This document shows positions 301 to 28,640 of a stretch of DNA of 28,640 nucleotides, piece by piece. Origin of the DNA: a virus. The stretch covers positions 1 to 28,640 of IMG/VR virus record IMGVR_UViG_3300020450_000073. The stretch is one strand, 5' to 3'. Below the pieces are notes generated by a model. It was given only the letters and a program-made list of their open reading frames with translations. It ran no database searches and had not been told where the DNA came from. Both the position numbers and the translations under genes were made by a program. Each line of letters begins with the position of its first letter. Positions within the stretch are counted from its first letter, which is position 1.

Positions 301-315
301 TTTAAATTAGTTTTG

Positions 316-344
316 AAAGGGACTCGAATGGGTCCCTTTTTTTT
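316..344 (+). terminator. Rho-independent terminator after gp32, possibly bidirectional
   Basis: AAAGGGAC (316-323) pairs perfectly with GTCCCTTT (332-339) around an 8-nt loop, and the T-run extends to 344. It lies 15 nt after the gp32 stop and abuts the last codons of the converging minus-strand gene. Read on the minus strand the same stem is followed only by TTTCAAAAC, so termination in that direction would be weaker. Confidence 0.85.
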
Positions 345-2229: not shown

Positions 2230-2239
2230 TTAATGTTCT

Positions 2240-2757: not shown

Positions 2758-2804
2758 TGCAAAGTTTGTCTTATAATGGTTTACAAGACTATCGTGCGAA
2801 AGGC

Positions 2805-3515: not shown

Positions 3516-3532
3516 AATATTCTCCTATATTA

Positions 3533-4809: not shown

Positions 4810-4815
4810 ATAATC

Positions 4816-4823
4816 TATTTATA
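4816..4823 (-). promoter_or_regulatory. T4-type late promoter motif TATAAATA before the 214-aa gene
   Basis: An exact TATAAATA on the minus strand lies in the 19-nt gap between gp4 and the next gene, ending 6 nt before ATG 4809. T4 late transcription starts about 6-7 nt after this motif, so the transcript would begin at or next to the start codon. The motif is common by chance in AT-rich DNA; placement is the only support. Confidence 0.4.
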
Positions 4824-4828
4824 CAGAT

Positions 4829-5269: not shown

Positions 5270-5276
5270 ATAAATA
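5269..5276 (+). promoter_or_regulatory. T4-type late promoter motif TATAAATA for the gp48 operon
   Basis: An exact TATAAATA on the plus strand overlaps the last base of the gp4 start codon and lies 47 nt before the gp48 ATG at 5324. It would start a leader of about 40 nt containing AGGAAAA 6 nt before gp48. It faces two minus-strand copies 18-35 bp away in the same spacer. Confidence 0.6.
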
Positions 5277-5293
5277 ACTCTATAGTAAAAAAA

Positions 5294-5311
5294 TATTTAT
5301 ATTTATTTATA
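5294..5311 (-). promoter_or_regulatory. Tandem T4-type late promoter motifs for the gp4 operon
   Basis: Two exact TATAAATA motifs on the minus strand (5294-5301 and 5304-5311), 10 bp apart and so on the same helix face, lie 24 and 34 nt before the gp4 start. They sit in the only divergent spacer in the window. Transcripts from them and from the plus-strand motif at 5269-5276 would overlap at their 5' ends. Confidence 0.6.
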
Positions 5312-5323
5312 TAGGAAAAACGT

Positions 5324-6328: not shown

Positions 6329-6333
6329 CAATA

Positions 6334-7110: not shown

Positions 7111-7115
7111 TTATT

Positions 7116-8453: not shown

Positions 8454-9046
8454 TGAAAAGAAAAGATGACCAATATAAAAATGGACTATTTACTTGGTTC
8501 TTAGGAAGTATAGAAGAAATAGATGACCCTCTAAATTTAAATAGAGTTAAAGTAAGAGCTTATGGTTATTATGATAGTGAAGAAATAAAAACAACTGATT
8601 TACCTTGGGCTACTGTTATGATGCCAGTTACGTCAGCATCTATAAAAGGCAATGGCGGTAATCATCATTTAGAAAAAGGTTCATGGGTTGTAGGATTTTT
8701 TAGAGATGGTCCATCAGCTCAAGACCCTATGGTTATAGGTTCAATTGCAACTCAAACAGCTGACGAAACTTTTGATTTCAGCAAGAATAAAAAAATCGAT
8801 ATTTTTAAACAAGATATACCATCAACTGCGTCAACAACAAATAAAGTACATCATACAAAAGCTGGCCATAAAATAGAATTTGAAAATAAAGAAGGCGATG
8901 AAAAAATTACTGTTCAACATGCTAATGGAGCCACAATTACTATTGATAAAGATAATAATGTTTCAATAGCTAATGGAGGAACTACAAGTATTACATCTTC
9001 TGGAGCTATTACAATTACATCAGCTGAAAAAACAACAATTATATAA
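8453..9046 (+). CDS. gp5: gp5-like baseplate spike without lysozyme domain
   Basis: The 197-aa protein has an OB-fold N-terminus (residues about 10-105: WFLGSIEEIDDPLNLNRVKV, DLPWATVMMP, GSWVVGFFRDGPSAQDPMVI), as in T4 gp5 and VgrG. Residues about 128-197 are a beta-helix stalk with HHTKAGHKIEFENKEGDEKI, then GATITIDKDNNVSI. T4 gp5 is 575 aa with an internal lysozyme between these parts; here there is no room for one, so this spike punctures without digesting murein. The C-terminus ends TSAEKTTII with no obvious metal-binding tip (HxH). It is coupled by TAATG to genes on both sides. The stalk is short, which implies either a short spike or a separate tip protein. Confidence 0.83.
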   Translation: MKRKDDQYKNGLFTWFLGSIEEIDDPLNLNRVKVRAYGYYDSEEIKTTDLPWATVMMPVTSASIKGNGGNHHLEKGSWVVGFFRDGPSAQDPMVIGSIATQTADETFDFSKNKKIDIFKQDIPSTASTTNKVHHTKAGHKIEFENKEGDEKITVQHANGATITIDKDNNVSIANGGTTSITSSGAITITSAEKTTII

Positions 9047-10314
9047 TGGCCGAACTTCCAAAAATAACCTTACCTGAGCTAGAATGCGCAGAAGTTATAC
9101 TACCACAACCAGTTAATTTATCTAACTTTTTTAGTGGTTTAGCTACTCTTCCAGGTAAATTAAAAGCTTTAGCACAAAATTTAATTGAAGAAGAAAAAGC
9201 TGAGTTTGAAAAACAAGCAGATGAAATACAAAAAATTATTGATGATATAAGAAAACTATTTGGTCCTTATGACCCTAAGTTTAAAAAATTAGAAATACCA
9301 GAAAAAGAATGGGAAATTATAATACAAAGGTTAATTGAAGAATATCCTATGTATATACAAACTCAAATAATGAATTTAATTACAACATTATTTCCAATAG
9401 AGTTTACTGTACCAATTCTTGGTATACAAATAGATGTTTTAAAGTTAGTCACTGACCGAGCATATTTAGATTCTATAGCTGCAGATATATCTGGGTTTGG
9501 CGCTGACATAGAAGCTAAAATTGCGCAGTTAGGCGATGATTTATCAGCTGAAGAATTACAAAAAGAAATTGATAAATTACGTAATGATAAAATAGATTCA
9601 TTGTATGCATTATTACCTGATGAATACAAATATTTTGACGGTGAATTTGGTTTAGAAAATCAAGAACTTAAAGCAAAACAAATTATGGACTTTATAAAAA
9701 ATGAAGCAACTAAGTTTATGAATGGTCAACTATTTAGTGGATTTGGTGGTTTAATAGATAAGTTTGATGAAATATGGAGTGCATTAGGTTTACCAGAATT
9801 ACCTATACCTTTAACAGGACCCGATGTAGGAGCATTAATTAAAGCAATTATTGAAGAAGAAAAAGCTAACTTTCAAGCAGAGTTAGATAAATTAGGCGAT
9901 ATAAAAGATGATTTAACTAAAGAAAAGTTATTACGAAAAATGCATGAAGGTATATTAGATAAATTAGAAAATTTAGAAATTCTTGGATTTAAAGTAGGTG
10001 CTTTATTTGGTGGTGACTTTGAAGATAAGTTTGAAAATCTAGATTTTAAAATTGCTAGAATATCTGCTAAATTAAAAGAGTTTAGAGAAAATTGGCAAAC
10101 TTATTTATTAAGAAAGTGGATGGAAACTGTAGATAAGTTTTTTAAACAAATTGGTTTAGGTGACTTGACTCAATGGGCTACATTTACATTCTGCGATTTT
10201 TTAAAACTTATAGGTATACCAACAACATTAGATTTAAGTGGATTTGGTAATATTACTACAGTAAGTAATACATTACAAGGAATTGAATCACAAGTACCCG
10301 AAGGAGCAACATAA
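9046..10314 (+). CDS. Unknown helical structural protein between gp5 and gp25 (422 aa)
   Basis: I do not recognise the family. The protein is mostly amphipathic helix, rich in Glu/Lys/Leu/Ile. The segment LIEEEKAEFEKQADEI (residues 46-61) recurs as IIEEEKANFQAELDKL (268-283), and each lies near Gly/Phe-rich turns (GFGADIEA, SGFGGLIDKF), suggesting internal duplication. A hydrophobic segment at about residues 101-135 (MNLITTLFPIEFTVPILGIQ) could be buried or membrane-active. It starts by TAATG coupling to gp5 and ends 17 nt before gp25, so it is very probably made with the hub and spike. A tail-lumen, spike-associated or hub-plug role is possible but unproven. Confidence 0.8.
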   Translation: MAELPKITLPELECAEVILPQPVNLSNFFSGLATLPGKLKALAQNLIEEEKAEFEKQADEIQKIIDDIRKLFGPYDPKFKKLEIPEKEWEIIIQRLIEEYPMYIQTQIMNLITTLFPIEFTVPILGIQIDVLKLVTDRAYLDSIAADISGFGADIEAKIAQLGDDLSAEELQKEIDKLRNDKIDSLYALLPDEYKYFDGEFGLENQELKAKQIMDFIKNEATKFMNGQLFSGFGGLIDKFDEIWSALGLPELPIPLTGPDVGALIKAIIEEEKANFQAELDKLGDIKDDLTKEKLLRKMHEGILDKLENLEILGFKVGALFGGDFEDKFENLDFKIARISAKLKEFRENWQTYLLRKWMETVDKFFKQIGLGDLTQWATFTFCDFLKLIGIPTTLDLSGFGNITTVSNTLQGIESQVPEGAT

Positions 10315-10318
10315 AGAG

Positions 10319-10326
10319 TATAAATA
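10319..10326 (+). promoter_or_regulatory. T4-type late promoter motif TATAAATA abutting gp25
   Basis: An exact TATAAATA sits in the 17-nt gap before gp25 and ends 5 nt before its ATG. Initiation 6-7 nt downstream would produce a leaderless or nearly leaderless gp25 message. No Shine-Dalgarno lies at normal spacing (AAAGAG is 13 nt away). Placement in a tiny gap is the main support. Confidence 0.45.
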
Positions 10327-10331
10327 GTATT

Positions 10332-10778
10332 ATGGCATTATATTCAGGAGATAAACAAATATCAGGTAATCTAGAACAAGCTAAGATTGTTTCTAGAAAA
10401 AAGCCTCATCGTGATTTAGATTTGTCTTTAAATATACATCCAATACGTAAAGATATAATACCTTTAAAGGATGATGCTGCTGTAAAAAACGCAGTAAAAA
10501 ATTTACTAATAAGTAATTTTTATGAAAGACCATTCCAAGATGATTTAGGAGCTAATTTAAGAGGATTACTCTTTGAACCGGTTGGTGTTATAACAAATAT
10601 AGAATTAAGAGATAACATAAGATTTGTATTAGAAAAATATGAACCAAGAATAGAAGTATTAGGTATAGACATTTTTGATGTATTTGATACAAATTCATAT
10701 CGTATAAAAGTAAATTTTAGAATAAAACAAAACAATCAATCTGATGCAGTTGAAATAGTATTAAGAAGGTTAAGATAA
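10332..10778 (+). CDS. gp25: gp25 baseplate wedge protein
   Basis: The 148-aa protein is a clear GPW/gp25 family member. The core has NFYERPFQDDLGANLRGLLF (residues 62-81) followed by EP, then LRDNIRFVLEKYEPRIEVLG (92-111) with the family's EPR triplet at 104-106, and a final beta pair to VLRRLR. T4 gp25 is 132 aa and forms part of the wedge core that holds gp6 and the sheath initiator site; homologues exist in all contractile systems (TssE). It is followed after 1 nt by gp6, as in most contractile tails where gp25 precedes the J-like protein. Confidence 0.92.
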   Translation: MALYSGDKQISGNLEQAKIVSRKKPHRDLDLSLNIHPIRKDIIPLKDDAAVKNAVKNLLISNFYERPFQDDLGANLRGLLFEPVGVITNIELRDNIRFVLEKYEPRIEVLGIDIFDVFDTNSYRIKVNFRIKQNNQSDAVEIVLRRLR

Positions 10779-10779
10779 A

Positions 10780-12624
10780 ATGGCAACAAATTTAAACGTA
10801 ACGGAACTAGATTTTTTAGATATTAAAAATAATCTAAAAAACTTTTTAAAACAACAAACAGAATTTAATGATTATGACTTTGAAGGTTCAGGTCTTAATG
10901 TATTATTAGATGTATTAGCGTATAATACACATTATAATGCTATGAATGCGCATTTTAGTTTAAATGAAGCATTTTTAGATTCTGCTCAACTTAGAGGTAA
11001 TGTAGTCACTAGAGCTAAATTACTTGGTTATACACCAAGGTCAGTTTTATCACCAAGAGCTCAAGTTGATATAGTTGTAAATATTGCAGGAGAAACTGGA
11101 ACGATACCTACTACACTTACATTACCAAGAGGTACAAAATTAAATACATCTGTAAGTGGAGAAGAGTTTCAATTTGTTGTATTAAATACACAAACAGCTA
11201 ATTTAGTTGGAACAACTTATACATTTAGTGATGTTTCAATTGTAGAAGGCGACTTAAGAGAAATAAAATATAGAGTTGATAATGATATAGAAAATCAAAA
11301 ATTTCAACTTTCAGATTTTGATGCTGACACGAGCACGCTACGCGTACGTGTACAGGCAAACCAAGAATCAACAGCATTTGATGTATATACTAAATTTGAA
11401 ACATTAAGAGGAGTTGATTCTACATCAAAGGTTTATTTTTTACAAGAGAATGCTGCTGGATATTATGAAGTACATTTTGGAGATGGCGTAACTGGATTTA
11501 AACCATCAAATAATAACATCGTTACTATAGATTATATGACAACACAAGGTAAAGAAAGTAATGGTGCTAATAGTTTTACCATGGTAGATTCAATTGGAGG
11601 ATTTTCTAGTATTACACTTACATTAGATAGTGCTGCTGCAGGTGGAGCTGAAGCTGAAACATCTGAATCAATAAGATTTAATGCACCACTTACTTTTATA
11701 GCTCAAAACAGAGCTGTGACGGCTGATGATTATGCATCTATTATTAAAAAAGAATTTTCTAATATAGATTCAATATCAACATGGGGTGGTGAAGATAACG
11801 ACCCACCAGATTTTGGTAGAGTTTATATTGCTATAAAACCTTTATTAGCTGATACACTTACAGAATCAGAAAAAACAGATATTATTGGTTCAATATTGAA
11901 AGGTAAAAATGTTGTTTCAATTACACCTGAAATTGTTGACCCCAACTTTACTCATTTAGAATTAGATGTTAATTTTAAATTTAATCCTAATTTAACTGAT
12001 AGAAGTTCAGTTGAGTTATCATCTGTTGTAAGAGATACAATAACAGATTATAATTTTAATAATTTAAATAAGTTTGACGGTGTATTTAGACACTCACAAT
12101 TAACAAGAGCAATAGATAATAGTGACCCATCTATTTTAAATACAATAATACGTCCAAGAATGTTTCAAAATATTACACCAGTAAATAATGCAGATAATAA
12201 TTTTAATTTATCTTTTTCATCACCATTTTTTCAGTCAGGAGATTCAACAAAGTTTTTACTTAATTCAACTGCATTTAAAATAAATAATATTGACCATTTC
12301 TTTGGTGATGAACCAATTGTTGGTTCTACAAAAAGAAATGTTATTGTATACAAAGTTGTCAATCAACAAAATATAACAGTTATATCTGATGCTGGAGAGA
12401 TAGATGTCGAAAATGGTAAAATAACTTTAAATAAATTTAGACCTGATACTACTGATGCTATTAAAATTACTGTAATACCTAATTCATTAGATTTAGCTCC
12501 TAAAAGAGACCAGTTAATTTCTATAGATAATAGTTTTGTAGTAATAACACCAGAAGTAGATACTATAGCAACTGCAGGTTCAGCTGGTTCTATTAATTAT
12601 AAAACAACTTCAAGATTTAAATAA
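10780..12624 (+). CDS. gp6: gp6 baseplate wedge protein (Baseplate_J-like)
   Basis: The 614-aa product compares with 660 aa for T4 gp6. The N-terminus (residues 8-60) has FLDIKNNLKNFLKQQTEFND then LNVLLDVLAYNTHYNAMNAH, the conserved start of gp6/TssF-like wedge proteins. Around residues 225-255 is FLQENAAGYYEVHFGDGVTG, and at 298-350 the J-like core SIRFNAPLTFIAQNRAVTAD with DYASIIKKEF. The C-terminal 200 residues are beta-rich. Gp6 dimers join wedges into the inner baseplate ring. The gene is coupled by TAATG to the gp7-like gene. Confidence 0.92.
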   Translation: MATNLNVTELDFLDIKNNLKNFLKQQTEFNDYDFEGSGLNVLLDVLAYNTHYNAMNAHFSLNEAFLDSAQLRGNVVTRAKLLGYTPRSVLSPRAQVDIVVNIAGETGTIPTTLTLPRGTKLNTSVSGEEFQFVVLNTQTANLVGTTYTFSDVSIVEGDLREIKYRVDNDIENQKFQLSDFDADTSTLRVRVQANQESTAFDVYTKFETLRGVDSTSKVYFLQENAAGYYEVHFGDGVTGFKPSNNNIVTIDYMTTQGKESNGANSFTMVDSIGGFSSITLTLDSAAAGGAEAETSESIRFNAPLTFIAQNRAVTADDYASIIKKEFSNIDSISTWGGEDNDPPDFGRVYIAIKPLLADTLTESEKTDIIGSILKGKNVVSITPEIVDPNFTHLELDVNFKFNPNLTDRSSVELSSVVRDTITDYNFNNLNKFDGVFRHSQLTRAIDNSDPSILNTIIRPRMFQNITPVNNADNNFNLSFSSPFFQSGDSTKFLLNSTAFKINNIDHFFGDEPIVGSTKRNVIVYKVVNQQNITVISDAGEIDVENGKITLNKFRPDTTDAIKITVIPNSLDLAPKRDQLISIDNSFVVITPEVDTIATAGSAGSINYKTTSRFK

Positions 12625-15251
12625 TGGGTTATAAAAAGACATTAACACCTGGTGCGATTGAAGTCGAACAAGGTACTTTGTCTGCAACAAGAGAAGATGT
12701 ACGTCTTAATCAATTAGTACCTTCTGAAATATTAGAAAATAAAGATAAATTAGATAAGTTTTTAAAAGCTTACTATACATTTATGAATATGGATGAGTTC
12801 ATATTTCAAGAAACTAATACATTTACTGATGTTGTACTTAATGGCCAAGCTCAATTTAGAATACCAGACCCTAATAATGAAAACAATAAATTTTTTACAG
12901 ATGAGTCAGGAGCTGATTCCACACTAGTACTTACATCACCTACAGGAACTACTAATAATATAACTTTAAATGCAATTAATGTTGCTATAACAAATGGTAA
13001 TGAATTACCTGGTACACTTGCAACATCTACATCTGAAATAGGTAAAACATTTACTGTCACTGGATTAGAATCTTTTAATAATCATACAGCTAAATTAACT
13101 ACAATACAAAAAAATTGGGTTGGTCCAGGTCCATCATATGTAATGAATACTATTGAAGAAGCTATGGATATCGATACTAATGATGAGGGTTATCTTGAAT
13201 TAATGCAAAAAGAAATTGCTGCTACAATTCCAAGAGGAGTCACAGTAAATAAAAGAACTTTATATAAACAAATAATAGATTTTTATAGATTAAGAGGTAC
13301 AACAGATTCTATTGAAATATTTTTCCAAATATTATTTAATGATTTTGCTGAAATAGAATTTCCTTTTGATAAAGTATTAATACCATCATCTGGTAATTGG
13401 GATGTTAATCCATCATTATCAAGAGGTGGACAATATTTAGATAATAAAGGATTTTTATCTGATAGTATTAAAATACAGGATAGTAAAAAGTTTCAAAAGT
13501 TTTCTTATTTAATTAAAACTGGTAAAAATTTAAGTGACTGGGATTTATCTTATAATAAATTAGTACACCCAGCTGGCTTTATTTATTTTGCTGAAATATT
13601 AATATTTTTACAATTGACAAAAGCAGTACTAGGTGAAGATGAAATTAAACAAGATGTTATAAGAAACGATGGTTTACCATTAGGTGTAAGAAAAGTTTTA
13701 TCAGCAATTCCGACAAGACAACCTGGTATAGTAGGACCTGAAGATATTCCATTACTCATAGAAATGTTCGTATCAACATTTTTACCAAACCCAATTACTA
13801 AAATTCATAAATCAGGAACTGTTTCACTTACACTTAAAAATGGAGTAATAAATGCTATTACCATAACAAATGGTGGAACAGGTTATACAGCTGTTCCAAC
13901 AATAACTACATCTGATGCTGCAGTTGCTAGTGGATTTACAACTGCTTCATTGACACCAGTTATAACAAACGGTTCAGTTGCTTCAGTTACGATAACAGAT
14001 GGTGGAAGAGATTATGGTATACCACAAATAGCATTTTCTGCTCCAACAGCTCAGACATTTAATGGTTCAAGTGCATCAATTGTAAGTACATCAAATAATA
14101 CTATAACATTAAGTGCTACACAAAGAGCTTCATGGCAGGTTGATGACCAATTAGTGTATTCAACTACTGGAACAGCTATTGGTGGATTACAGGCAGGCGG
14201 TACTTATTATATAAAAACAATTACCGGTAATGCGATATCTCTATATCAAAATACTACTACAAAAGCTGAAATTAATATATCAGGCCTTGGTGTAGGTTCA
14301 ACACATACATTAACAGGTATAACAGCTACTGGAACAGCAACTTCCTTAAATGGTCAATTAAAAGCTTTAACAGTAGAAGAACCTGGATTTGGATATACTG
14401 GTTCTTCAGTATCAATAAGTTTTAATGGTGTAGCCATTGATGGACTTACAGGTGTTGCACCAGTTGTATCAATAGCTTTAGATTCAGAAGGTAAATTAAA
14501 TGGTGAAGCAATTACAATTACTAGTAGAGGTAGTAATTGGTCTAACTTATTTGGTTCAGTTCCAGCAAATCCAAATGCAAGTAAAATAGCTTCAATATCT
14601 CTTGTTGGATTATCAAATAAATTATATTCAACAGCTCCTACTATAATATTCCCTGAACCAACTGCAGTTGATGCTGAAGGTAATTTACTAAGTACAAACG
14701 TAAAAGCAGTAGCTAATTTTACTTTAGATTCAGAAGGAGAAATAACAGGAGTAAATATATCAAATGCAGGTAATGGATATGTATTTGACCCGATTATATC
14801 TTTTGGTAGTGGACCTAATAATGAAACAAGAGTAAAAGATGTAGCTGAAGTATTAGAAATTAATTGTAATCATAATGAAGTGACACCAATAGATAGTGTT
14901 GTAGTAAATCCAAGACAAGCCTCTGGTTCACAAGATGGCAGAACATTATTTAATGGTGGATTACTAAAAATTGGTGCATTATCAAGTGGAGCAAATTGGA
15001 CAATAACTCAGTCATCAAGTTCAGCAGATAAATTTTTACCAGAACATAGAGTAAAAGTCAAAAATGATAATTTTAGAACTATAATAAATAATAATTATAT
15101 ACAAAGAAAAGGTACGGACAATTTTTTTACAAGTCCAAGGCTTTATAATACTAACAGAACAATTGAGTCTTTAGGTAATAAAACGTTGCAAACTATCGAC
15201 TCAAGTGATATAAATAATAATAACACTAGTACATTTGTACACATTGAATAA
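12624..15251 (+). CDS. gp7: gp7-like baseplate wedge protein with beta repeat region (875 aa)
   Basis: Position after gp6 and the helical core (residues about 170-345) fit gp7/gpI-type wedge proteins: NTIEEAMDIDTNDEGYLELM, TLYKQIIDFYRLRGTTDSIE, FFQILFNDFAEIEFPF, NKLVHPAGFIYFAEILIFLQ. T4 gp7 is 1032 aa. Residues about 404-728 are a beta-rich array of about five copies of a motif like ITITNGGTGYTAVPTI, interrupted at about 480-567 by a different module with GLQAGGTYYIKTITGNAISL. The C-terminus (NNNYIQRKGTDNFFTSPRLY) is again conserved-looking. Gp7 links the inner ring to gp8 and gp10-type peripheral proteins. The repeat region probably decorates the baseplate edge. Confidence 0.72.
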   Translation: MGYKKTLTPGAIEVEQGTLSATREDVRLNQLVPSEILENKDKLDKFLKAYYTFMNMDEFIFQETNTFTDVVLNGQAQFRIPDPNNENNKFFTDESGADSTLVLTSPTGTTNNITLNAINVAITNGNELPGTLATSTSEIGKTFTVTGLESFNNHTAKLTTIQKNWVGPGPSYVMNTIEEAMDIDTNDEGYLELMQKEIAATIPRGVTVNKRTLYKQIIDFYRLRGTTDSIEIFFQILFNDFAEIEFPFDKVLIPSSGNWDVNPSLSRGGQYLDNKGFLSDSIKIQDSKKFQKFSYLIKTGKNLSDWDLSYNKLVHPAGFIYFAEILIFLQLTKAVLGEDEIKQDVIRNDGLPLGVRKVLSAIPTRQPGIVGPEDIPLLIEMFVSTFLPNPITKIHKSGTVSLTLKNGVINAITITNGGTGYTAVPTITTSDAAVASGFTTASLTPVITNGSVASVTITDGGRDYGIPQIAFSAPTAQTFNGSSASIVSTSNNTITLSATQRASWQVDDQLVYSTTGTAIGGLQAGGTYYIKTITGNAISLYQNTTTKAEINISGLGVGSTHTLTGITATGTATSLNGQLKALTVEEPGFGYTGSSVSISFNGVAIDGLTGVAPVVSIALDSEGKLNGEAITITSRGSNWSNLFGSVPANPNASKIASISLVGLSNKLYSTAPTIIFPEPTAVDAEGNLLSTNVKAVANFTLDSEGEITGVNISNAGNGYVFDPIISFGSGPNNETRVKDVAEVLEINCNHNEVTPIDSVVVNPRQASGSQDGRTLFNGGLLKIGALSSGANWTITQSSSSADKFLPEHRVKVKNDNFRTIINNNYIQRKGTDNFFTSPRLYNTNRTIESLGNKTLQTIDSSDINNNNTSTFVHIE
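13833..14807 (+). repeat. GxGY-type beta repeats in gp7-like protein
   Basis: About five degenerate copies (residues near 405-431, 447-472, 576-600, 617-645 and 695-727) share the pattern xVxITNGGxGYxxxPxIxF. A separate 88-residue module sits between copies two and three. Two further copies occur in gp8 at about 275-300 and 318-350. Confidence 0.6.
15209..15216 (+). promoter_or_regulatory. T4-type late promoter motif TATAAATA before gp8
   Basis: An exact TATAAATA in the last codons of the gp7-like gene lies 48 nt upstream of the gp8 ATG. The leader would hold the AGGACAGGA ribosome binding site. Position supports it, but the motif is inside coding sequence that encodes Asp-Ile-Asn-Asn, so chance is possible. 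Confidence 0.4.
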
Positions 15252-15264
15252 TTAGGACAGGAAA

Positions 15265-16905
15265 ATGCCAGCAATAATAACATCAAATTTTAGAACTTTA
15301 AACGCACAACATTTTAAAGAGCAAATATCAGGTTCTAGTGTATACGTAGGTATAGGTAAATCAGACCCATGGTCATTGACTACTTCAGATACTACTGACA
15401 CTACTCCATTTACACCAAGTGATAGATTGGACGATTTAGGAGAAGCAAGAGCTAATTTAATAGGATTGAAAAAAATCGTAGCAGCAGATATTGCACATGT
15501 AGTACCAAGACATACATGGACTTCCGGAAGGTCATATGTAGCATGGGACTCAGACGACCCAGATATTTTTGATAAAGCGTTTTACATAGTCACATCTGAG
15601 TTTAAAGTATATAAATGCATCATAGCTGGTGGAGGTGCTTCAAGTATACAACCAACTCAAACATTAACTGACCCAACAGCAGAATCAGATGGATATACAT
15701 GGAAGTTTATGTATACAATATCAGTCACAGATGCTGAAAAGTTTTTAACTAATAGTTATATGCCAGTAAAAACTGTGTCATTAGGCGCAACTGCTACAGT
15801 AGCAGTAGCTTCATCTACAACTACAATAGTATTAACTGAAACTGTACCAGAAATAGTTGTGGGTATGACAGTATCAGGAACTAATGTAGGTTCTGGTAAA
15901 ACTGTTTCAGCAATTAATGGTTCAGTATTAACATTAAGTGGTACACCAAGTGGTTCAGTATCAGGTATACTTACATTTGCATACGCAAATGATGCAGCTG
16001 CCGAAGCTAGTCTTTCAGAGGCTGACTTTGCTCAATACTTAAACCAAAAAGCTTCAAGAGATTCATCAACAGCTGCTGGTATTGAAAGAATTGAAGTCAC
16101 AGCTGCTGGTTCATCTTTTAGTAGTAAACCTAATGTGGTAATAACTGGTGATGGAACAGGAGCCACAGTAGCTGCAGGCAATATTACAATGGCTGGTTCT
16201 GGTTCAAGCCAAACAGTTTCGAGTATCACTATACAAAATAAAGGTAGTGATTATAGATTTGCAGATATTTCTATAACTGGTGGTGGAGGTTCAGATGCCA
16301 CTGCAAGAGCAGTTATAGCTCCAAAAGCTGGTCACGGTGTTGACCCAGTTGCAGAATTAGGCGGATTTTTTATATCACTTAATTCTAAATTAGATGGTAA
16401 TGATGGTGGTGATTTAACAGTAGGTAATGATTTTAGACAAATTACTTTATTTAATGAGCCAAGAGTATTTAACTCAACTCCATTAGCTGGTTTACTAGCT
16501 ACAGCAGATACTTTAAAAGGTACTAAAGCTTTAGATTTTAATTCATCTGCAAATGTATCAAATTATGTAATTGATGAATTACTTGTAGGTGGTACATCAG
16601 GAGCTCAAGCATATGTAGTTGAAATTGATACATCAAATGGATTTGTAAGATACCATCAAAATTCTAAAACCGGTTATAAGTCTTTTACAACTGGAGAAGT
16701 AGTCACTGGTCAAACTTCTAGTAATGCAGGAACATTAGAAGCTAATGCATCAAATCAAGTAAGTGGTATAACTTATATAGCTGATGCAGTAGTAGCTCCA
16801 GAAGTAGATAGACATAGTGGTGATATACTATTTTTAGAAAATAGAAACCCAATTAATAGAACAACATCACAGATTGAAGATATTAAAGTTATTATAGAAT
16901 TCTAA
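15265..16905 (+). CDS. gp8: gp8 baseplate wedge protein with inserted beta modules
   Basis: The N-terminus (residues 1-165) matches T4 gp8: ITSNFRTLNAQHFKEQI, SSVYVGIGKSDPW, RHTWTSGRSYVAWDSDDPDI, KAFYIVTSEFKVYKCI and YTWKFMYTISVTDAEKFL. T4 gp8 is 334 aa; this protein is 546. The extra length is beta modules: residues about 172-239 (MTVSGTNVGSGKTVSAINGS), two GxGY-like repeats at 275-350, and a GETVTG-type segment at about 434-500. Conserved gp8 pieces resume between and after them (VDPVAELGGFFISLN, VDRHSGDILFLENRNPINR, IEDIKVIIEF). Gp8 dimers link gp7 to the hub-proximal wedge. AGGACAGGA precedes the start. Confidence 0.9.
   Translation: MPAIITSNFRTLNAQHFKEQISGSSVYVGIGKSDPWSLTTSDTTDTTPFTPSDRLDDLGEARANLIGLKKIVAADIAHVVPRHTWTSGRSYVAWDSDDPDIFDKAFYIVTSEFKVYKCIIAGGGASSIQPTQTLTDPTAESDGYTWKFMYTISVTDAEKFLTNSYMPVKTVSLGATATVAVASSTTTIVLTETVPEIVVGMTVSGTNVGSGKTVSAINGSVLTLSGTPSGSVSGILTFAYANDAAAEASLSEADFAQYLNQKASRDSSTAAGIERIEVTAAGSSFSSKPNVVITGDGTGATVAAGNITMAGSGSSQTVSSITIQNKGSDYRFADISITGGGGSDATARAVIAPKAGHGVDPVAELGGFFISLNSKLDGNDGGDLTVGNDFRQITLFNEPRVFNSTPLAGLLATADTLKGTKALDFNSSANVSNYVIDELLVGGTSGAQAYVVEIDTSNGFVRYHQNSKTGYKSFTTGEVVTGQTSSNAGTLEANASNQVSGITYIADAVVAPEVDRHSGDILFLENRNPINRTTSQIEDIKVIIEF
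15778..15981 (+). repeat. VxGT-TVSAI beta module in gp8
   Basis: Residues about 172-239 of gp8 align by eye with residues about 142-207 of the following 1831-aa protein: both have the order TTTIVLT-like strand, VG..V.GT, TVSAI.G, LTLS and a closing LTF. It is absent from T4 gp8. Confidence 0.6.
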
Positions 16906-16930
16906 TAGATAATATTAGGAAGAGAGATTT

Positions 16931-22426: not shown

Positions 22427-22434
22427 GATAAGAA

Positions 22435-22638
22435 ATGCCAAGAAAGAAAAAAGTAGAAGATTTACCAGGATACGAAAAAGATACTGTTACGAACGTAATT
22501 ATAAATACTAATAGTAGTGCTTTTTCTAATAGAAGAGACCAGCTTCAAAAACTTAAAGAAAAAGACAGTGAAATCGAGCAAATGAAAACTGATATAGAAG
22601 AGCTTAAAAAAATTATTAAAAAATTAGGTAGTAAATAA
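22435..22638 (+). CDS. Small coiled-coil protein before the fibre (67 aa)
   Basis: A short basic N-terminus (MPRKKKVEDLPGY) and a beta-like stretch (TVTNVIINTNSSAFSNRR) are followed by a strong heptad coiled coil at residues 38-67 (LQKLKEKDSEIEQMKTDIEE). AGGATAAGA precedes the start, and the stop overlaps the fibre ATG by 1 nt. Tight coupling to the fibre gene suggests an assembly partner or a trimeric collar for fibre attachment. I do not recognise a family. Confidence 0.78.
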   Translation: MPRKKKVEDLPGYEKDTVTNVIINTNSSAFSNRRDQLQKLKEKDSEIEQMKTDIEELKKIIKKLGSK

Positions 22639-25600
22639 TGGCAATAAGAGACGAAGTAAGAATATTTAAATCAAGTACTCTAGAAGAATTTAGACAAAAG
22701 AGTAATGAACTTTCTATAAGAAATGTAGGTGATGATAATCTCATACATACAAATATTGCAGATAAAAAAGAATCATTCACAGCTGCAGCAAGTCAAAAGT
22801 TTTTTGAACTAAGTGGTAGGTTTGAAATATTACCTGACCAAACTATTGATAAAACAACAGGAGTTGCTGAAGCATATAGAGTTGGAGCTGTAAGAGTAAC
22901 GAAACAAGGTACTGCTTTAGTTCAAGGTTTAGAATCAGCTAATTTTAAAGTACCTAATTATACTTTAAAAGTCACATTAACAGGTTCACCAACAATACCA
23001 GCTGAGTTTGTAGAAAATGCTGTGTTAACTCAATCAGGTGGATTCTCAGGTACTCTTTTATCAGCAGATTCTACAACATTAAGATTTAAATCATTTACTG
23101 GTACGTTCAATACAGGTCAAAACTTAGGTATACCTCATACAAATGTAGATAAAAGAGTTGTTGCGGGTAATATATCAGCAAAAACAGATATTGATGCTGG
23201 CCATGGTATTTTAATTGAATTAATAACAGGTGCAAGTGCTAATGATGTTATTATTGTCGATTCAACTAGTTTAGTTGATGCAGTTAACGAATTACAAGAT
23301 GACGTAGGTATAGTAGAAAATTTATCAACTAGCGCCAAAGTATTAACACTTGCAGTTAATGAGCACGAAACAGATTTATTTGGAACAGGCAATGTCACAT
23401 TTAGTGGATTATCATCTACAGGATTTCAAGATGCTATTGAAGAAGTAAGAACTGAATTAGGTGCTCATACTTCATTGGGTACTACATTTACAACAAATGT
23501 TGTTGGAGCTGTAAATGAATTAGAAACTGCAATAAGAGGAAGTGGAAGTAATTATACATTAGGTACAGACTCAAGTAATATTATATCAGCTATTAATGAA
23601 TTAGAAACTGGTATAAGAGGTAGTACTTCAGATTATGCAACAACTGTTAATGCTGGAAGTATAACACAAGATATTGATACATTAGACGCTGAACTTGGAA
23701 CAATTACCGCGGGTGCAATGGGTACAACTGCTTCAACAGTAAGTGGTGCTATAGCTGAACATGAAACTCAAATAGGTAATGCAAATATTAATAGTATTGC
23801 ATCAGGCAATAATACTATTACAGGAGCTTTAGTACAATTACATACAGAATTAGGAAGTGCTTCATTAGATACAGGTGCTACTACTCATGCTGGTGCGATT
23901 AATGAATTACATGGAGAAATAAATTCTAACGATACAGATATAGCTACAATTAATACCAAACTTGGTACAATTTCGGCTGCAGCATTTGGTACATCAGCAT
24001 CTACAGTAAGTACTGCAATTGCAGAATTACATACTGATGTTGATGCAAGAGTAAAATTAGTTTCTGGTTCAGAACAAACACTTGCTTCTGACCTTAAATT
24101 AGGAAGTGGAAAAACTCTTGATTTATCAGATGGTACATTATTACTTGCGGCAGGTGGTGCGGGTTCAGTATCTAGTTTTGGTACAGCTTTCTTACAAGTA
24201 GATGGCAATTTAACTTCTTCCCCTATGGGAGTAAGAGTTGATAGAGACCATATCACTCCATCAGGTTCAATGACTAATCATGATGTTGAATTACAATGGG
24301 ATGAAACACAAGTAGCCTCTAATGCAAAAAGAGCATGGAGATTAAAAGGAATGGCCGATAACGGTTCTGCAAATACTGCAGATATCGTAACTTTCTATAA
24401 TGCTGAAGATTTAATTACAAATAATGCAGAATCTGGTATATCAGTCACATGGGATTCAACAAATCAAAACTTTGATTTTGATGTTAATGACCCAACAATT
24501 TCTTTAACAGGAGATGTGACTGGTTCAGCAACAATGACTAATTTAGGTAATGTAAGTATTGCCACAACAATAGCTGCAAATTCAATAGCTTTAGGAACAG
24601 ACACAGTTGGTAATTATGTTTCGACAATTGCTGGTACTTCAAATGAAATCGAAGTATCAGGTTCTGGTTCTGAAACTGCAACAGTCACTATAGGCTTACC
24701 AAACGATGTGACTATAGGACAAGATTTATCTGTCACTCGTGATGTAGCAATAACTAGAAATTTAACAGTAGGTGGAAATACTACTTTAGGTAATCAATCA
24801 TCTGATACAGTTTCTATTCCTGGTAATTTAACAATTACTGGCGACTTGACTGTTAATGGTACTAATACAATCTTAAATACAGCAACATTAGAAGTAGAAG
24901 ATACTTTAATACTTACAGGTACTGCTGGTACCGAACCATCAACAGGTGGTTTTGGTATTGAAACAAGATTGTTCACCGGTACAAGTGTACCAAGTGGAGC
25001 AGCATCAAATGTCACAGGTACTCATTCATTAGTATATAACTTTGCTACAGACCAATGGGAAGCAGATGGTTCATTAGTATTATCAGAAGCTACATTAGGA
25101 ACAGCTAAAGTTGAAAACACAGATTTTGGAAGTGGCAAAGATTTAGTATTTGCAGCTGGTTCAGGTTTATCAGAAGCAGTCACAGGTTTAAGTGGTAATA
25201 CTTTTACTGTCACATATACAAATACAGATAAAGGTTCATCTCAATTATTCTATAAAACATTTACTACTGATGCTGGTTCAAATGTAGTTGCTAGTGCAAA
25301 TAATGATACTATAGATTTTGAAGGTGGAACTGGTTTGACAACTACTGGTTCAGCAGATAAAGTATCAATTAAATTAGATGACACATCAGTCACAGCAGGA
25401 AGTTATGGTAGTGGTACTGCAATTCCAACATTTACTGTAGATGCTCAGGGGCGTTTAACAGCTGCAGGTACAGTTTCAGTTGATACATATTCAGGCTGGA
25501 ATCTAACAGTTGCTGGAACAGATAGAGGTAATATATCAGAAAATGAAAATGTATCATTTGTAGGTGGAACAGCTATTGATGCAACTTATAGTGCTACAAA

Positions 25601-26894
25601 TAATGTTATTACATTTAATCACGCAGATACATCAAGTGTCAGTGATGTAGACAATAGTGGTACTAATTTCATACAAGATATGACTTTTGATACTTTTGGT
25701 CATGTTCAATCAGTCACATCAGCTGGATTCAGTTTAGGTAATGGACAACTTACAATGAATACTTCTGGTAGTGGTTTAAGTGGTTCACAAACATTTACAG
25801 CTAATGCTACAGGTAATTCAATATTTACTGTCACATTAAATTCAGACACTGGTTCAAATGCAGATACAGTTGCATTAAGAGATACTAATGGAAATATTGC
25901 TGCTAATTTCTTTAAAACAGATGATGCAAACAATATTTCATCTGGAAGCGTTACTAAGTTATTTGCTGAATCAGGTAATGATGGATTTATTAGATATGCT
26001 CAACCTGCAGCAGTAAGACAATTTATAAACGTTGCTGATGGAGCTACAAATACTACAAATCCAAATAATGCTACTATAACAGTATCAGCTGGAACATCAC
26101 TAAGTGGTGGAGGTTCATTTACAACTGACCAATCAAGTAATGGTACAATTACAATTAATCATGCTGATACATCCAGTCAAGGTTCTGTAAATAATAGTGG
26201 TAGAACATACATACAAGATATTACACTTGATACTCATGGTCACGTTACTGCTATTAATTCAGCTACAGAAACTGCAGTATCAGATACAGGTACACCAGCT
26301 ATTACAAGTAATGGTTCATCACCATCATTAAATTCTGGTATAAGTGATGCAGAAATAAGAACCTTAATTGGAGCTGGTACTTCATCATTCTCAGGAGCAT
26401 ATGCTGATTTAAGTGGTAAACCAACAATACCTACAAATAATAATCAATTAACAAATGGCGCTGGATATAGTACTTTTACATCAAACCAAGGATTAAATAC
26501 TAATGATAATGTTAGGTTTGACGGATTAAGAGTTGGTGATTTAACATCAGCTCCAGCAAATACTATTCAATGTACTGGAGATATTGTAGCGTTTGCAAGT
26601 TCAGATGAAAGATTAAAAGATAACTTATCACCAATAAGTAATTCATTAGAAAAAGTTGGACAATTAAAAGGTTATGAGTTTGATTGGAATGATAAACAAG
26701 AAGTATATGCAGGTCATGACGTTGGTGTGTTAGCTCAAGAGGTAGAAAAAGTGGTACCAGAAATTGTAGAAACAAGAGAACATGACGGATATAAAGCAGT
26801 TAAATACGAAAAATTAGTACCATTATTAATAAATGCTATTAATGATTTAAAAGCTGAAATTGAAGAACTAAAAGATATAAATAAGAAGGTATAA
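22638..26894 (+). CDS. Large tail fibre with C-terminal S74 self-cleaving chaperone
   Basis: This 1418-aa protein is a trimeric-fibre type protein. Residues 1-200 form an attachment region with a beta module (VLTQSGGFSGTL, residues about 129-140). Residues about 208-470 have about ten helical repeats of 26-27 residues (AINELETGIRG, AVNELETAIRG, AIAEHETQIG, AINELHGEIN), suggesting a triple coiled-coil shaft. Then come beta-helix modules (NLTVGGNTTLG, GDLTVNGTNT) and two HADTSS...GHV units near residues 996 and 1175. The last 100 residues are a peptidase S74 intramolecular chaperone: SSDERLKDN with S1322 and K1327 as the likely Ser-Lys dyad, VLAQEVEKVVPEIV and a final coiled coil. S74 domains fold the trimer and then cut themselves off. 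It probably recognises the host. The start is coupled by TAATG. Confidence 0.88.
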   Translation: MAIRDEVRIFKSSTLEEFRQKSNELSIRNVGDDNLIHTNIADKKESFTAAASQKFFELSGRFEILPDQTIDKTTGVAEAYRVGAVRVTKQGTALVQGLESANFKVPNYTLKVTLTGSPTIPAEFVENAVLTQSGGFSGTLLSADSTTLRFKSFTGTFNTGQNLGIPHTNVDKRVVAGNISAKTDIDAGHGILIELITGASANDVIIVDSTSLVDAVNELQDDVGIVENLSTSAKVLTLAVNEHETDLFGTGNVTFSGLSSTGFQDAIEEVRTELGAHTSLGTTFTTNVVGAVNELETAIRGSGSNYTLGTDSSNIISAINELETGIRGSTSDYATTVNAGSITQDIDTLDAELGTITAGAMGTTASTVSGAIAEHETQIGNANINSIASGNNTITGALVQLHTELGSASLDTGATTHAGAINELHGEINSNDTDIATINTKLGTISAAAFGTSASTVSTAIAELHTDVDARVKLVSGSEQTLASDLKLGSGKTLDLSDGTLLLAAGGAGSVSSFGTAFLQVDGNLTSSPMGVRVDRDHITPSGSMTNHDVELQWDETQVASNAKRAWRLKGMADNGSANTADIVTFYNAEDLITNNAESGISVTWDSTNQNFDFDVNDPTISLTGDVTGSATMTNLGNVSIATTIAANSIALGTDTVGNYVSTIAGTSNEIEVSGSGSETATVTIGLPNDVTIGQDLSVTRDVAITRNLTVGGNTTLGNQSSDTVSIPGNLTITGDLTVNGTNTILNTATLEVEDTLILTGTAGTEPSTGGFGIETRLFTGTSVPSGAASNVTGTHSLVYNFATDQWEADGSLVLSEATLGTAKVENTDFGSGKDLVFAAGSGLSEAVTGLSGNTFTVTYTNTDKGSSQLFYKTFTTDAGSNVVASANNDTIDFEGGTGLTTTGSADKVSIKLDDTSVTAGSYGSGTAIPTFTVDAQGRLTAAGTVSVDTYSGWNLTVAGTDRGNISENENVSFVGGTAIDATYSATNNVITFNHADTSSVSDVDNSGTNFIQDMTFDTFGHVQSVTSAGFSLGNGQLTMNTSGSGLSGSQTFTANATGNSIFTVTLNSDTGSNADTVALRDTNGNIAANFFKTDDANNISSGSVTKLFAESGNDGFIRYAQPAAVRQFINVADGATNTTNPNNATITVSAGTSLSGGGSFTTDQSSNGTITINHADTSSQGSVNNSGRTYIQDITLDTHGHVTAINSATETAVSDTGTPAITSNGSSPSLNSGISDAEIRTLIGAGTSSFSGAYADLSGKPTIPTNNNQLTNGAGYSTFTSNQGLNTNDNVRFDGLRVGDLTSAPANTIQCTGDIVAFASSDERLKDNLSPISNSLEKVGQLKGYEFDWNDKQEVYAGHDVGVLAQEVEKVVPEIVETREHDGYKAVKYEKLVPLLINAINDLKAEIEELKDINKKV
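23259..24047 (+). repeat. About 27-residue helical repeats in the fibre shaft
   Basis: Motif starts fall near residues 212, 235, 263, 289, 316, 342, 369, 395, 418, 435 and 459, mostly 26-27 apart. The consensus is roughly xxAINELETxIG, separated by Gly/Thr/Ser turns. The copies are diverged at DNA level. Confidence 0.7.
24783..24890 (+). repeat. Beta-module shared between the two fibre genes, copy 1
   Basis: ACTTTAGGT, ATCATCTGATAC and GGTAATTTAACA blocks occur in the same order at 28317-28425 in the next fibre gene. Both translate to a TLGxxSSDTVxxxGNLTxxGxLTVxGT pattern. Confidence 0.65.
26598..26891 (+). other. Peptidase S74 chaperone domain of the fibre
   Basis: Residues 1321-1418: SSDERLKDN start motif, GYEFDWN, GVLAQEVEKVVPEIV, a GYKAVKYEKLVPLLINAI core and a terminal helix. 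Predicted autocleavage falls just before the Ser of SDERLK, releasing about 97 residues. Confidence 0.88.
26876..26883 (+). promoter_or_regulatory. T4-type late promoter motif TATAAATA before the 112-aa gene
   Basis: An exact TATAAATA in the last fibre codons ends 18 nt before ATG 26902. A transcript starting near 26890 would have a leader of about 12 nt. AAGAAGG (26883-26889) lies at the edge of the predicted start. It would allow separate expression of the small fibre-associated genes. Confidence 0.4.
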
Positions 26895-26901
26895 AGAATA
26901 A

Positions 26902-27240
26902 ATGGCTGTTTACTCTAATATAGTTATAGACCAAGGAGCAGATTACACAGCTTCTATCGATGTGACTGATGCAGATGGAGATGCCGTTGATTTGACTGGA
27001 CATACAGGTAAAGGTCAAATAAGGAAATCATATGCATCATCAACAGCTGTAGATTTTACTGTAAATGTAAAAGCACCAGCAACTAATGGAGTATTAACAA
27101 TTGGTTTGACAAATGTACAAACTAATGCTATGAAAGCTGGACGTTATGTATATGATGTAGAAATAACAAGTTCAGCTGGTACAAAAACAAGAGTTTTAGA
27201 AGGACAAGTAGAAATAACACCTGGAGTAACGCAAACATAA
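26902..27240 (+). CDS. Small Ig-like/BppU-N-like virion protein (112 aa)
   Basis: The protein is an all-beta domain: YSNIVIDQGADYTASIDVTD, then DLTGHTGKGQIRKSY, VLTIGLTNVQTNAMKAGRYV and YDVEITSSAGTKTRVLEGQV. This order (strand, acidic turn, DLTG, IRKS, GxYxYDVE) resembles the N-terminal domain of BppU-type baseplate proteins and small structural proteins of marine T4-like phages. It starts after the fibre and is coupled to the next gene by TAATG. It probably acts as a fibre adaptor or decoration protein. Family resemblance is by eye. Confidence 0.7.
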   Translation: MAVYSNIVIDQGADYTASIDVTDADGDAVDLTGHTGKGQIRKSYASSTAVDFTVNVKAPATNGVLTIGLTNVQTNAMKAGRYVYDVEITSSAGTKTRVLEGQVEITPGVTQT

Positions 27241-27485
27241 TGCCTAATTATAAAGCAAGAATAAATCAAGATGCAAACCTAAAGAGTAAGGTTAAAGGCA
27301 ATCCAGATAAAATTGTAGCTCAAACTTTAAAGGTTGGTAATGTTGGATTATCAGACTTAACTGATGTTAATCCTACTAACCTTGGAGATGGAGCCCTTTT
27401 ACAATATAATGCTGCATCAGCTCAATGGGACGCTAAAACAAATATTGATAACGGAAACCTAGTAATAACAGGGGGAGTATTTTAA
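27240..27485 (+). CDS. Small fibre-associated protein (81 aa)
   Basis: A basic N-terminus (MPNYKARINQDANLKSKVKG) and a short beta strand precede LSDLTDVNPTNLGDGALLQY and NAASAQWDAKT, a motif frequent in tail-fibre proteins (beta prism segments ending in W-x-x-KT). It ends ITGGVF. It starts by TAATG coupling and ends 3 nt before the next fibre gene. It could be an adaptor or a fibre head piece detached as its own gene. Confidence 0.72.
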   Translation: MPNYKARINQDANLKSKVKGNPDKIVAQTLKVGNVGLSDLTDVNPTNLGDGALLQYNAASAQWDAKTNIDNGNLVITGGVF

Positions 27486-27488
27486 AAA

Positions 27489-28640
27489 ATGGCAGCTTTA
27501 ACAAGAATAAAACATCTTACCAGTTCAGGAACTACTGCACCAAGTAGTTTATTAAAAACTGGTGAGATTGCATATACATTTGGCGCTGGGACACAAGCTA
27601 ATGGTGGTGGAAGAGTTTATATAGGTGTTGGTGCAGAATCTGGTGGTATTGCAAGTGGTCAAGAAATAGTAGGTGGTAAGTATTTTACAGATTTATTAGA
27701 CCATGCACATGGAACTACAACTGCAAATAGTGCATTAATTGTAGATAGTGCAAAACACATAACAGAATTAAATATTGGAAGTTTAGCTCTTGAAGCATCA
27801 GGTGGTTCAGGACAAGTAGTCACAGCAATATCTACTGATACTTCAATGGGTGGAGGTTCAGCTTCTAACGCAAACCTTGCAACTCAATTAGCTATTAAAA
27901 CTTATGTTGATGCTCAAGTCACAGCACAAGATTTAGATTTTCAAGGCGATACAGGTGGTGCTTTATCTATAGATTTAGATTCAGAAGTATTTACAATTGC
28001 TGGTACAGCTAATGAAATAGAAACAGCAGGTTCTGGTAATACTATAACTATTGGTTTACCAACCAATGTAGATATTACTGGTGATTTAGATGTAGCAACT
28101 TTAGATGTTGCAACTTCAGCTGAAATAGCTTCAGCTAAAATAGAAGATTTAACAAACAATAGAGTAGTAATTGTAGGTACTGGTGGCGAACTAGAAGATG
28201 ATGGAAACTTTGTATTTGATGGCACAACTTTAAATGTTGGTGCAGGTAATTTTACAGTTGCTCAAGGTACTGGTAATACAGTTGTTGGTGGAACATTACA
28301 AGTAAATGGAAACGTTACTTTAGGTGATTCATCATCTGATACTGTTCAAACTCAAGGTAATTTAACAGTTGGTGGAAACTTAACTGTTCAAGGTACAACT
28401 ACATCAGTTAATTCAACACAAACAACTTTAACTGACCCAATGATAGAATTGGCAAAAGATACTTCTTCTGCTGATGGTCTTGATAGAGGGGTAAGATTTA
28501 AATACCATAATGGTTCAGCAGTTAAAGATGGATTCTTTGGTTTAGATATACAAACAGAAAGATTTATATTTACTAAAGATGAAGATTTCTCAGGTGGAGA
28601 AAATGCTTCAACTCCTTTCCATGATGCTCAGTTTGGCGGT
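27489..28640 (+). CDS. Second tail fibre, N-terminal part (truncated by window end)
   Basis: The frame opens at ATG 27489 (MAALTRIKHLTSSGTTAPSS) and is open for 384 codons to the last base. The N-terminus with TGEIAYTFGAG and GRVYIGVGAES resembles the head domain of T4-like marine fibres. A central region (GLPTNVDITGDLDVATLDV) is followed by beta repeats, including TLGDSSSDTVQTQGNLTVGG and GNLTVQGTTTSVNSTQTTLT, similar to modules in the 1418-aa fibre. The last visible part (DRGVRFKYHNGSAVKDGFFG, then IQTERFIFTKDEDF) is a common fibre domain. No S74 domain is visible; the C-terminus is outside the window. Confidence 0.8.
   Translation, partial: MAALTRIKHLTSSGTTAPSSLLKTGEIAYTFGAGTQANGGGRVYIGVGAESGGIASGQEIVGGKYFTDLLDHAHGTTTANSALIVDSAKHITELNIGSLALEASGGSGQVVTAISTDTSMGGGSASNANLATQLAIKTYVDAQVTAQDLDFQGDTGGALSIDLDSEVFTIAGTANEIETAGSGNTITIGLPTNVDITGDLDVATLDVATSAEIASAKIEDLTNNRVVIVGTGGELEDDGNFVFDGTTLNVGAGNFTVAQGTGNTVVGGTLQVNGNVTLGDSSSDTVQTQGNLTVGGNLTVQGTTTSVNSTQTTLTDPMIELAKDTSSADGLDRGVRFKYHNGSAVKDGFFGLDIQTERFIFTKDEDFSGGENASTPFHDAQFGG
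28317..28425 (+). repeat. Beta-module shared between the two fibre genes, copy 2
   Basis: This is the partner of 24783-24890, with the same block order at DNA and protein level. It could serve as a recombination site between fibre genes. Confidence 0.65.

What the first reader, a model, noticed from the sequence alone, without database searches (positions are those of the whole stretch)
8627..28318. GTTAC/GTAAC survives only where a neighbouring base makes CG; GTCAC/GTGAC used instead
By eye I find 13 GTWAC pentamers: starts 8627, 10798, 11488, 11521, 13986, 19175, 22486, 22896, 24387, 25950, 26244, 27226 and 28314. Every one is preceded by C or followed by G. None occurs with other flanks, although about 40 would be expected. 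GTSAC occurs about 55 times, around twice expectation. Val-Thr is written GTC ACA, GTG ACA, GTT ACG or GTA ACG, or preceded by rare C-ending codons (AGC, AAC, CAC, ATC, GGC), but never as the otherwise favoured GTT ACA or GTA ACA after A/T/G. The rule holds on both strands. It looks like avoidance of a 7-bp palindromic word, not-C GTWAC not-G, by restriction, a modification-dependent nuclease or a self-encoded nuclease.
Basis: partly seen in the sequence, partly recalled or inferred. Interest (0 to 1): 0.75.

Follow-up and report, generated by a model that had tools for sequence, protein, structure and literature searches.

The report
Phage genomes purged of flank-limited GTWAC
A marine virus of bacteria has removed nearly every copy of one short DNA word from its genome, except copies with a C before or a G after, and a distant cousin shows the mirror-image exception, which points to unseen DNA-cutting defences of marine bacteria.

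Summary
The window (28,640 b, a T4-like marine phage contig) holds 13 GTWAC words, all preceded by C or followed by G. Forbidden forms (D-GTWAC-H) number 0 against about 50 expected from two codon nulls. The pattern is lineage-specific: it recurs in 14 of 80 gp6 relatives and genome-wide in one clade. Most relatives are normal, and so are two other marine phage families (0 of 115 testable contigs below 0.2 of expectation).

Two other T4-like phages show related rules. Contig C79 (121 kb) has no GTWAC in 120 kb (about 218 expected), and also lacks ACSGT, CCGG, GGWCC and nearly all GATC and GTAC, mostly familiar restriction sites. Contig G061 (140 kb) has the mirror rule: only G-flanked sites survive (66 of 78 expected, against 3 of about 140 without G).

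Best reading: host type II restriction has purged three nested forms of one word. "CG" as such is not the general cause. Whether the C exemption is the enzyme's recognition or protection by modified cytosine (the clade carries a dCMP-hydroxymethylase cassette) is unresolved. No enzyme was found.

The parts
8627..8631 (.). AGTTACG, exempt GTWAC (G after)
10798..10802 (.). CGTAACG, exempt (both flanks)
11488..11492 (.). CGTAACT, exempt (C before)
11521..11525 (.). CGTTACT, exempt
13986..13990 (.). AGTTACG, exempt
19175..19179 (.). AGTAACG, exempt
22486..22490 (.). TGTTACG, exempt
22896..22900 (.). AGTAACG, exempt
24387..24391 (.). CGTAACT, exempt
25950..25954 (.). CGTTACT, exempt
26244..26248 (.). 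CGTTACT, exempt
27226..27230 (.). AGTAACG, exempt
28314..28318 (.). CGTTACT, exempt
1..28640 (.). whole window: 0 D-GTWAC-H (about 50 expected) and 0 GATC
10780..12624 (+). T4 gp6-like baseplate wedge gene, used to find relatives and build the tree
   Evidence: PHROG 219, E 1e-171; relatives; tree

Best explanation
The missing word is the recognition site of a restriction endonuclease met by this phage lineage in its hosts, most likely an orthodox type II enzyme with a 7-bp degenerate palindrome, D-GTWAC-H. Sites were lost mainly by single changes W to S at the centre (GTT ACA to GTC ACA) or by gaining a flank the enzyme does not accept (GTT ACA to GTT ACG; codon ending changed to C). Shown: the depletion, its flank dependence, its lineage specificity and its whole-genome extent. 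Shown in other phages: a mirror-flank form (G061) and a flank-independent form (C79), the latter beside purged classic restriction sites. Inferred: that a host nuclease is the agent, and that its outer base is part of its recognition.
For: Codon nulls exclude codon and codon-pair usage. In 20 de-duplicated contigs of the clade (209 kb, 66,643 codons) forbidden words are 0 against 300 expected, while 92 non-avoiding relatives sit at 0.71 to 1.22 of expectation in every flank class. Per contig the observed/expected ratio is bimodal. It is not general to marine phages: 0 of 115 testable contigs of HMO-2011-type and HTVC010P-type phages fall below 0.2. In C79 GTWAC (0 of 235 expected) is purged together with GATC (1 of 440), GTAC (1 of 346), CCGG (0 of 70), GGWCC (0 of 90), ACSGT (0 of 96) and GTGCAC (0 of 14). 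G061 shows the same core with the opposite flank (A/T flanks 1 of 102, C flanks 2 of 38, G flanks 66 of 78). One exempting flank on either side suffices in both rules, as expected for a dimeric enzyme on a palindrome. A promoter-side 11-bp repeat that reads TGTTACA in non-avoiding relatives reads CGTTACA or CGTAACA three times in strict avoider contig L338. Published: avoidance in phages is mostly of orthodox type II sites (PMC6286503, passages seen).
Against: No enzyme, methylase or host was identified. The phage clade seems to make 5-hydroxymethyl-dCMP, which normally blocks most type II enzymes (T4 DNA resisted 214 of 227; PMC7653180 passages), so the enzyme would have to tolerate a modified terminal C. 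The flank effect is graded, not all-or-none: CGTWACC is depleted (4 against 15.6) although it should be exempt, and partial avoiders lose TGTWACA most. Near-avoider L273 keeps three TGTWACA in one intergenic array. I recall no catalogued enzyme with these exact specificities; this was not checked in a database.
Confidence: 0.5

Rival explanations
1. The enzyme recognises plain GTWAC; C-flanked copies survive because the flanking cytosine (CpG) is modified in this clade. The clade carries a dCMP hydroxymethylase, glycosyltransferase-type genes and a C5-MTase-like gene between gp43 and uvsX, so a bulky or methylated C at -1 would block cutting.
For: The cassette is present in avoiders L241 and L212 and in non-avoiding relatives; the hydroxymethylase matches T4 dCMP hydroxymethylase at E 1e-70 with the dCMP-type Asp motif (motif reading recalled). 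Phages C79, G061 and G060 lack the tested cassette genes, and in C79 and G061 C-flanked sites are not exempt (0 of 37 and 2 of 38).
Against: G061 has an equally sharp exemption for G flanks, with no cassette and no PF01555, PF00145 or PF05063 methylase found. If all C is modified, the C inside GTWAC is modified too and does not protect. CGTWACC is depleted. Residual GATC sites in GATC-poor contigs show no CpG-specific survival: GGATCC-type flanks survive as well as CpG ones.
Confidence: 0.28
2. A phage-encoded nuclease with GTWAC specificity destroys host or rival DNA, and the phage has purged its own sites.
For: Avoidance tracks phage lineage: avoiders and partial avoiders fall in one 33-row clade of the gp6 tree, and no avoidance was seen in two other marine families.
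Against: No nuclease-like gene was associated with avoidance in the regions compared, but the head, nrd and variable early regions of avoiders were mostly not sampled. C79's parallel loss of several unrelated restriction words is not explained by one phage nuclease.
Confidence: 0.1
3. A modification-dependent (type IIM or IV) nuclease reads modified cytosine in GTWAC of hydroxymethylated phage DNA.
For: The clade's inferred hydroxymethylcytosine.
Against: C79 and G061 show GTWAC avoidance without the cassette. A published survey found only weak avoidance for modification-dependent enzymes (PMC6286503 passages).
Confidence: 0.06
4. The word is a binding site (for example of a response regulator at 11-bp repeats) kept at promoters and purged elsewhere.
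For: Tandem TGTTACA-N4 arrays at 11-bp period precede a promoter-like sequence in several relatives; L273 has 3 of its 4 forbidden words there.
Against: Phages with intact arrays (L256, L276, L280, L282, L290, L292) are labelled non-avoiders, with normal GTWAC elsewhere, and most strict avoiders have no array in the sequence held.
Confidence: 0.03
5. Codon, codon-pair or mutational bias, or chance.
For: None found.
Against: Both codon nulls; relatives with 80 to 85% identical gp6 and similar GC show normal counts.
Confidence: 0.01

Closest known systems
Restriction-site avoidance by lytic phages (orthodox type II systems; Rusinov et al. 2018, PMC6286503)
   Same: Near-complete loss of a short palindromic word, on both strands, by synonymous change, in a lytic-type dsDNA phage.
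   Different: The word is flank-limited, with one outer base exempt, and related phages show the mirror exemption or none. The host and enzyme are unknown.
Type II enzymes of the GTNAC group: MaeIII (GTNAC), Tsp45I (GTSAC), BstEII (GGTNACC); specificities recalled, MaeIII/GTNAC seen only in a search listing
   Same: Same GT-N-AC core.
   Different: GTSAC is enriched here, not avoided, so the pressure is W-centred. The outer-base limits D/H do not match these.
Degenerate D/H recognition as in Bsp1286I, GDGCHC (recalled, not checked)
   Same: Shows that a type II enzyme can exclude one base at a symmetric position.
   Different: Different core; no link shown.
T4-type hydroxymethylcytosine phages
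   Same: The clade encodes a T4-like dCMP hydroxymethylase and glycosyltransferase-type genes.
   Different: hmC coliphages avoid few sites (2.4% against 55.8% without hydroxymethylase; PMC6286503 passage); this clade still purges GATC and GTWAC.

Membership tests
Restriction-site avoidance (orthodox type II) | palindromic word strongly under-represented beyond composition and codon usage | tested here: met
Restriction-site avoidance (orthodox type II) | genome-wide, not one gene or strand | tested here: met
   window plus gp43, gp32, gp23 regions of relatives; strand symmetry is inherent in a palindrome
Restriction-site avoidance (orthodox type II) | lineage-specific, absent from close relatives | tested here: met
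Restriction-site avoidance (orthodox type II) | same word avoided together with known restriction sites | tested here: met
   C79; in the window clade only GATC accompanies it clearly
Restriction-site avoidance (orthodox type II) | host encodes the cognate enzyme and methylase | not testable with these tools
   host unknown; MAG contigs around C79 show normal GTWAC
CpG-methylation protection of overlapping sites | all CpG-overlapping sites exempt, others not, in every phage with the rule | tested here: not met
   G061 mirror rule; CGTWACC depleted in the clade
T4-type hydroxymethylcytosine phage | dCMP hydroxymethylase gene | tested here: met
   in relatives L241, L212, L179 and others; the window itself does not cover that region
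T4-type hydroxymethylcytosine phage | hydroxymethylcytosine in virion DNA | not testable with these tools
   needs virion DNA

The most novel reading that the evidence does not exclude
Marine bacteria carry an undescribed family of restriction systems that share a GTWAC core and differ in the outer base pair they exclude: D-GTWAC-H, H-GTWAC-D and plain GTWAC. Phage genomes record each specificity well enough to read it from sequence alone.
Probability: 0.4. Interest if true: 0.72.

Novelty: new variant of a known kind. Interest (0 to 1): 0.62.

Why it matters
Avoidance of restriction sites by phages is known. What is unusual is that the flanking base decides survival so sharply and in opposite ways in two phage lineages, so that phage genomes can serve as a readout of defence specificities in uncultured hosts. 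It also gives a test case for how a phage clade that apparently makes hydroxymethylcytosine remains exposed to two particular nucleases.

Tried and rejected
Additive-specificity idea with optimum GGTWACC: an early table suggested GGTSACC was avoided too; the larger de-duplicated set gave 5 against 5.5 expected (boundary-preserving null), so it was dropped. CpG protection as the general cause: weakened by the mirror rule. Gene-content association with avoidance: nothing nuclease-like; the best hits were a 58-aa family and an apparent antisense shadow ORF. Avoider-specific modification cassette: rejected, because avoiders and non-avoiders share it. PF12851 (TET) search: empty, but its controls rang nowhere, so uninformative. 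A TET-type route was considered because of the Pfam name TAGT and set aside when the TS-family gene proved to be dCMP-hydroxymethylase-like. Host search through an IscU-like phage gene returned only 3 MAG contigs: C79 is a phage by gene content, the other two were not avoiders, and no host follows. The C79 MTase (L511:5608-6492) was absent from 9 related contigs, but it cannot cause avoidance and was not pursued. Rfam search of window, L084, L266 and L270: none. Burke 2021 (PNAS) was recalled and is not held. GTWAC searched in the paper library: 2 unrelated papers.

Caveats on counts: one search scored 591 units; 238 lacked power (under 5 expected), 318 had the word, 25 window-type, 3 mirror (L524 is part of G061), 2 all-purged (L260 weak, 0 of 3.1 expected C-flanked), 4 undecided, 1 mixed. 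Many contigs overlap or are near-copies (window, L001 and L002; L064 and L065; L028 and L029; L138 and L527). ORFs in scripts were called by a simple longest-ORF rule.
Full report
Observation. The window is a whole virus record of 28,640 bases, 31.8% G+C (from the base counts), with a T4-like tail and baseplate gene block. All 13 GTWAC words lie where stated and each has C before or G after. D-GTWAC-H is 0, against 51.8 +- 3.9 under synonymous-codon permutation and 49.1 +- 4.7 when codon-boundary dinucleotides are kept; C/G-flanked GTWAC is 11 against 6.8 and 5.8; GTSAC is 54 against 16.4 and 21.8 (19 genes). Of 55 Val-Thr pairs, GTW ACH occurs 5 times, always after a C-ending codon, against about 47 expected. 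GATC is also absent, 0 against 44 to 84 expected depending on the null.

Relatives. More contigs around gp23, gp43 and gp32 show the same, so the rule is genome-wide. In the gp6 tree all 15 strict avoiders and the 8 partial ones fall in a 33-row clade with SH-aLRT 95, together with 10 normal rows; the avoiding label needs 4 changes. GATC avoidance is separable: L042 lacks forbidden GTWAC but keeps 11 GATC, while L075 and L080 lack GATC and have normal GTWAC.

Flank grading. In 20 de-duplicated avoiding contigs (66,643 codons) forbidden words are 0 against 300 expected. Exempt classes by 5' flank pair: C.C 21 against 3.6, A.C 42 against 24.1, C.T 17 against 21.5, C.G 4 against 15.6. Non-avoiders (92 contigs) range from 0.71 to 1.22 in all classes. 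In 29 partial avoiders the forbidden survivors are 52 A.T, 23 A.A, 6 T.T, 10 G.T and 7 A.G; relative to the class expectations, T.T is the most depleted. So C protects most, and T or G flanks are worst.

Not general. In contigs of two unrelated marine phage families found with the HMO-2011 polymerase and the HTVC010P terminase, 0 of 115 testable contigs fall below 0.2 of expectation and 2 lie between 0.2 and 0.4. Cultured Melnitz, Mosig and HTVC008M have normal GTWAC in the 49-kb stretches examined but few GATC (10 against 164, 7 against 125, 28 against 133).

Two informative phages. A scan of bacterial genomes with an IscU-like gene of a near-identical phage led to G057:C79, a 121-kb contig in a Sphingobacteriales metagenome bin, which carries gp23, gp20, gp18, TerL, gp43, nrdAB and a gp6 36% identical to the window's, so it is a T4-like phage. 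Its 120 kb examined hold no GTWAC in any flank context, against about 157 forbidden and 61 exempt expected. It also lacks ACSGT (0 of 96), CCGG (0 of 70), GGWCC (0 of 90), GTGCAC (0 of 14), nearly all GATC (1 of 440) and GTAC (1 of 346). A list like this is what several restriction systems would leave. G061 (140 kb, found through C79's gp23) shows the mirror rule: words with A/T flanks only 1 of 102, C flanks 2 of 38, G flanks 66 of 78, mixed C and G 11 of 18. G060 (151 kb) has normal GTWAC but lacks CCGG, GGWCC, GTGCAC and GACGTC (140 kb examined). Contig L152 also looks mirror-type, with low power.

Modification. Between gp43 and uvsX the clade carries a TS-family protein that matches T4 dCMP hydroxymethylase (E 1e-70), a dCMP deaminase, variable genes (glucosyltransferase-like, HMUDK_hel, inositol-phosphate-synthase-like) and a C5-MTase-like protein. 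Avoiders (L241, L212) and non-avoiders (L179, L247) share the hydroxymethylase region, so it does not cause the avoidance. It could explain why this clade purges few words: hydroxymethylase phages avoid few restriction sites (PMC6286503, passages seen) and T4 DNA resists 214 of 227 type II enzymes (PMC7653180, passages seen). It could also explain why a flanking C protects; C79, G061 and G060 have no match to the cassette genes tested. The mirror rule in G061, in which no PF01555, PF00145 or PF05063 methylase was found (D12 not tested there), shows that a sharp flank rule does not need that cassette.

A regulatory array. Several non-avoiding relatives have 3 to 4 copies of TGTTACA-N4 at exactly 11-bp period upstream of a promoter-like sequence; near-avoider L273 keeps three copies, 3 of its 4 forbidden words; strict avoider contig L338 has the same kind of array with every unit in exempt form, CGTTACA or CGTAACA. 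The homologous gaps of avoiders L084, L260, L270 and L314 have no array. The array resembles response-regulator repeats (recalled).

Conclusion. The window phage lineage has purged D-GTWAC-H. Restriction is the best-supported cause; the 7-bp degenerate recognition site is the simplest account of the flank rule because mirror and flank-free forms exist in other phages, and protection by modified flanking cytosine is the main rival. The responsible enzyme and the hosts remain unknown.

Noticed in passing
window 1-28640: GATC is completely absent (44 to 84 expected); also absent or nearly so in many relatives, in HTVC019P (42 kb) and in 50 kb of HMO-2011, so it is a wider marine-phage feature than GTWAC.
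   Followed up: partly
L241:11756-18363; L179:15793-22256; L212:6891 onward: DNA hypermodification cassette between gp43 and uvsX: dCMP hydroxymethylase, dCMP deaminase, interchangeable glucosyltransferase-like or HMUDK_hel/inositol-phosphate-synthase-like genes, and a conserved C5-MTase-like gene with a PC motif.
   Followed up: partly
L256:1913, L273:4937, L276:3091, L280:5297, L282:952, L290:617, L292:4813; L338:6848: Tandem 11-bp repeats TGTTACA-N4 upstream of promoter-like sequences; exempt CGTWACA form in the avoiding contig L338.
   Followed up: partly
L511-L516 (G057:C79): Near-complete T4-like phage contig (121 kb) binned in a Sphingobacteriales MAG, lacking at least six restriction-like words and carrying its own N6/N4 DNA methylase (L511:5608-6492).
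   Followed up: partly
L606-L612 (G060): T4-like 151-kb contig with CCGG, GGWCC, GTGCAC and GACGTC at zero but normal GTWAC.
   Followed up: no
L084:865-2700; L083 gene I899_gp019: Phage-encoded CHASE2 plus adenylate/guanylate cyclase protein, shared by several relatives and annotated as cyclase in HTVC008M.
   Followed up: no
L084:3850-4030, L266, L270, L314: Conserved, structured-looking intergenic segment before an early promoter; no Rfam match in L084, L266 and L270.
   Followed up: partly
avoiding contigs: AGCTA is 2.6 times more frequent and TCGA about half as frequent as in non-avoiding relatives; possibly codon or tRNA related.
   Followed up: no
window: CTTAAG (2 against 11.8) and ACATGT (2 against 12.7) are also low.
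   Followed up: no
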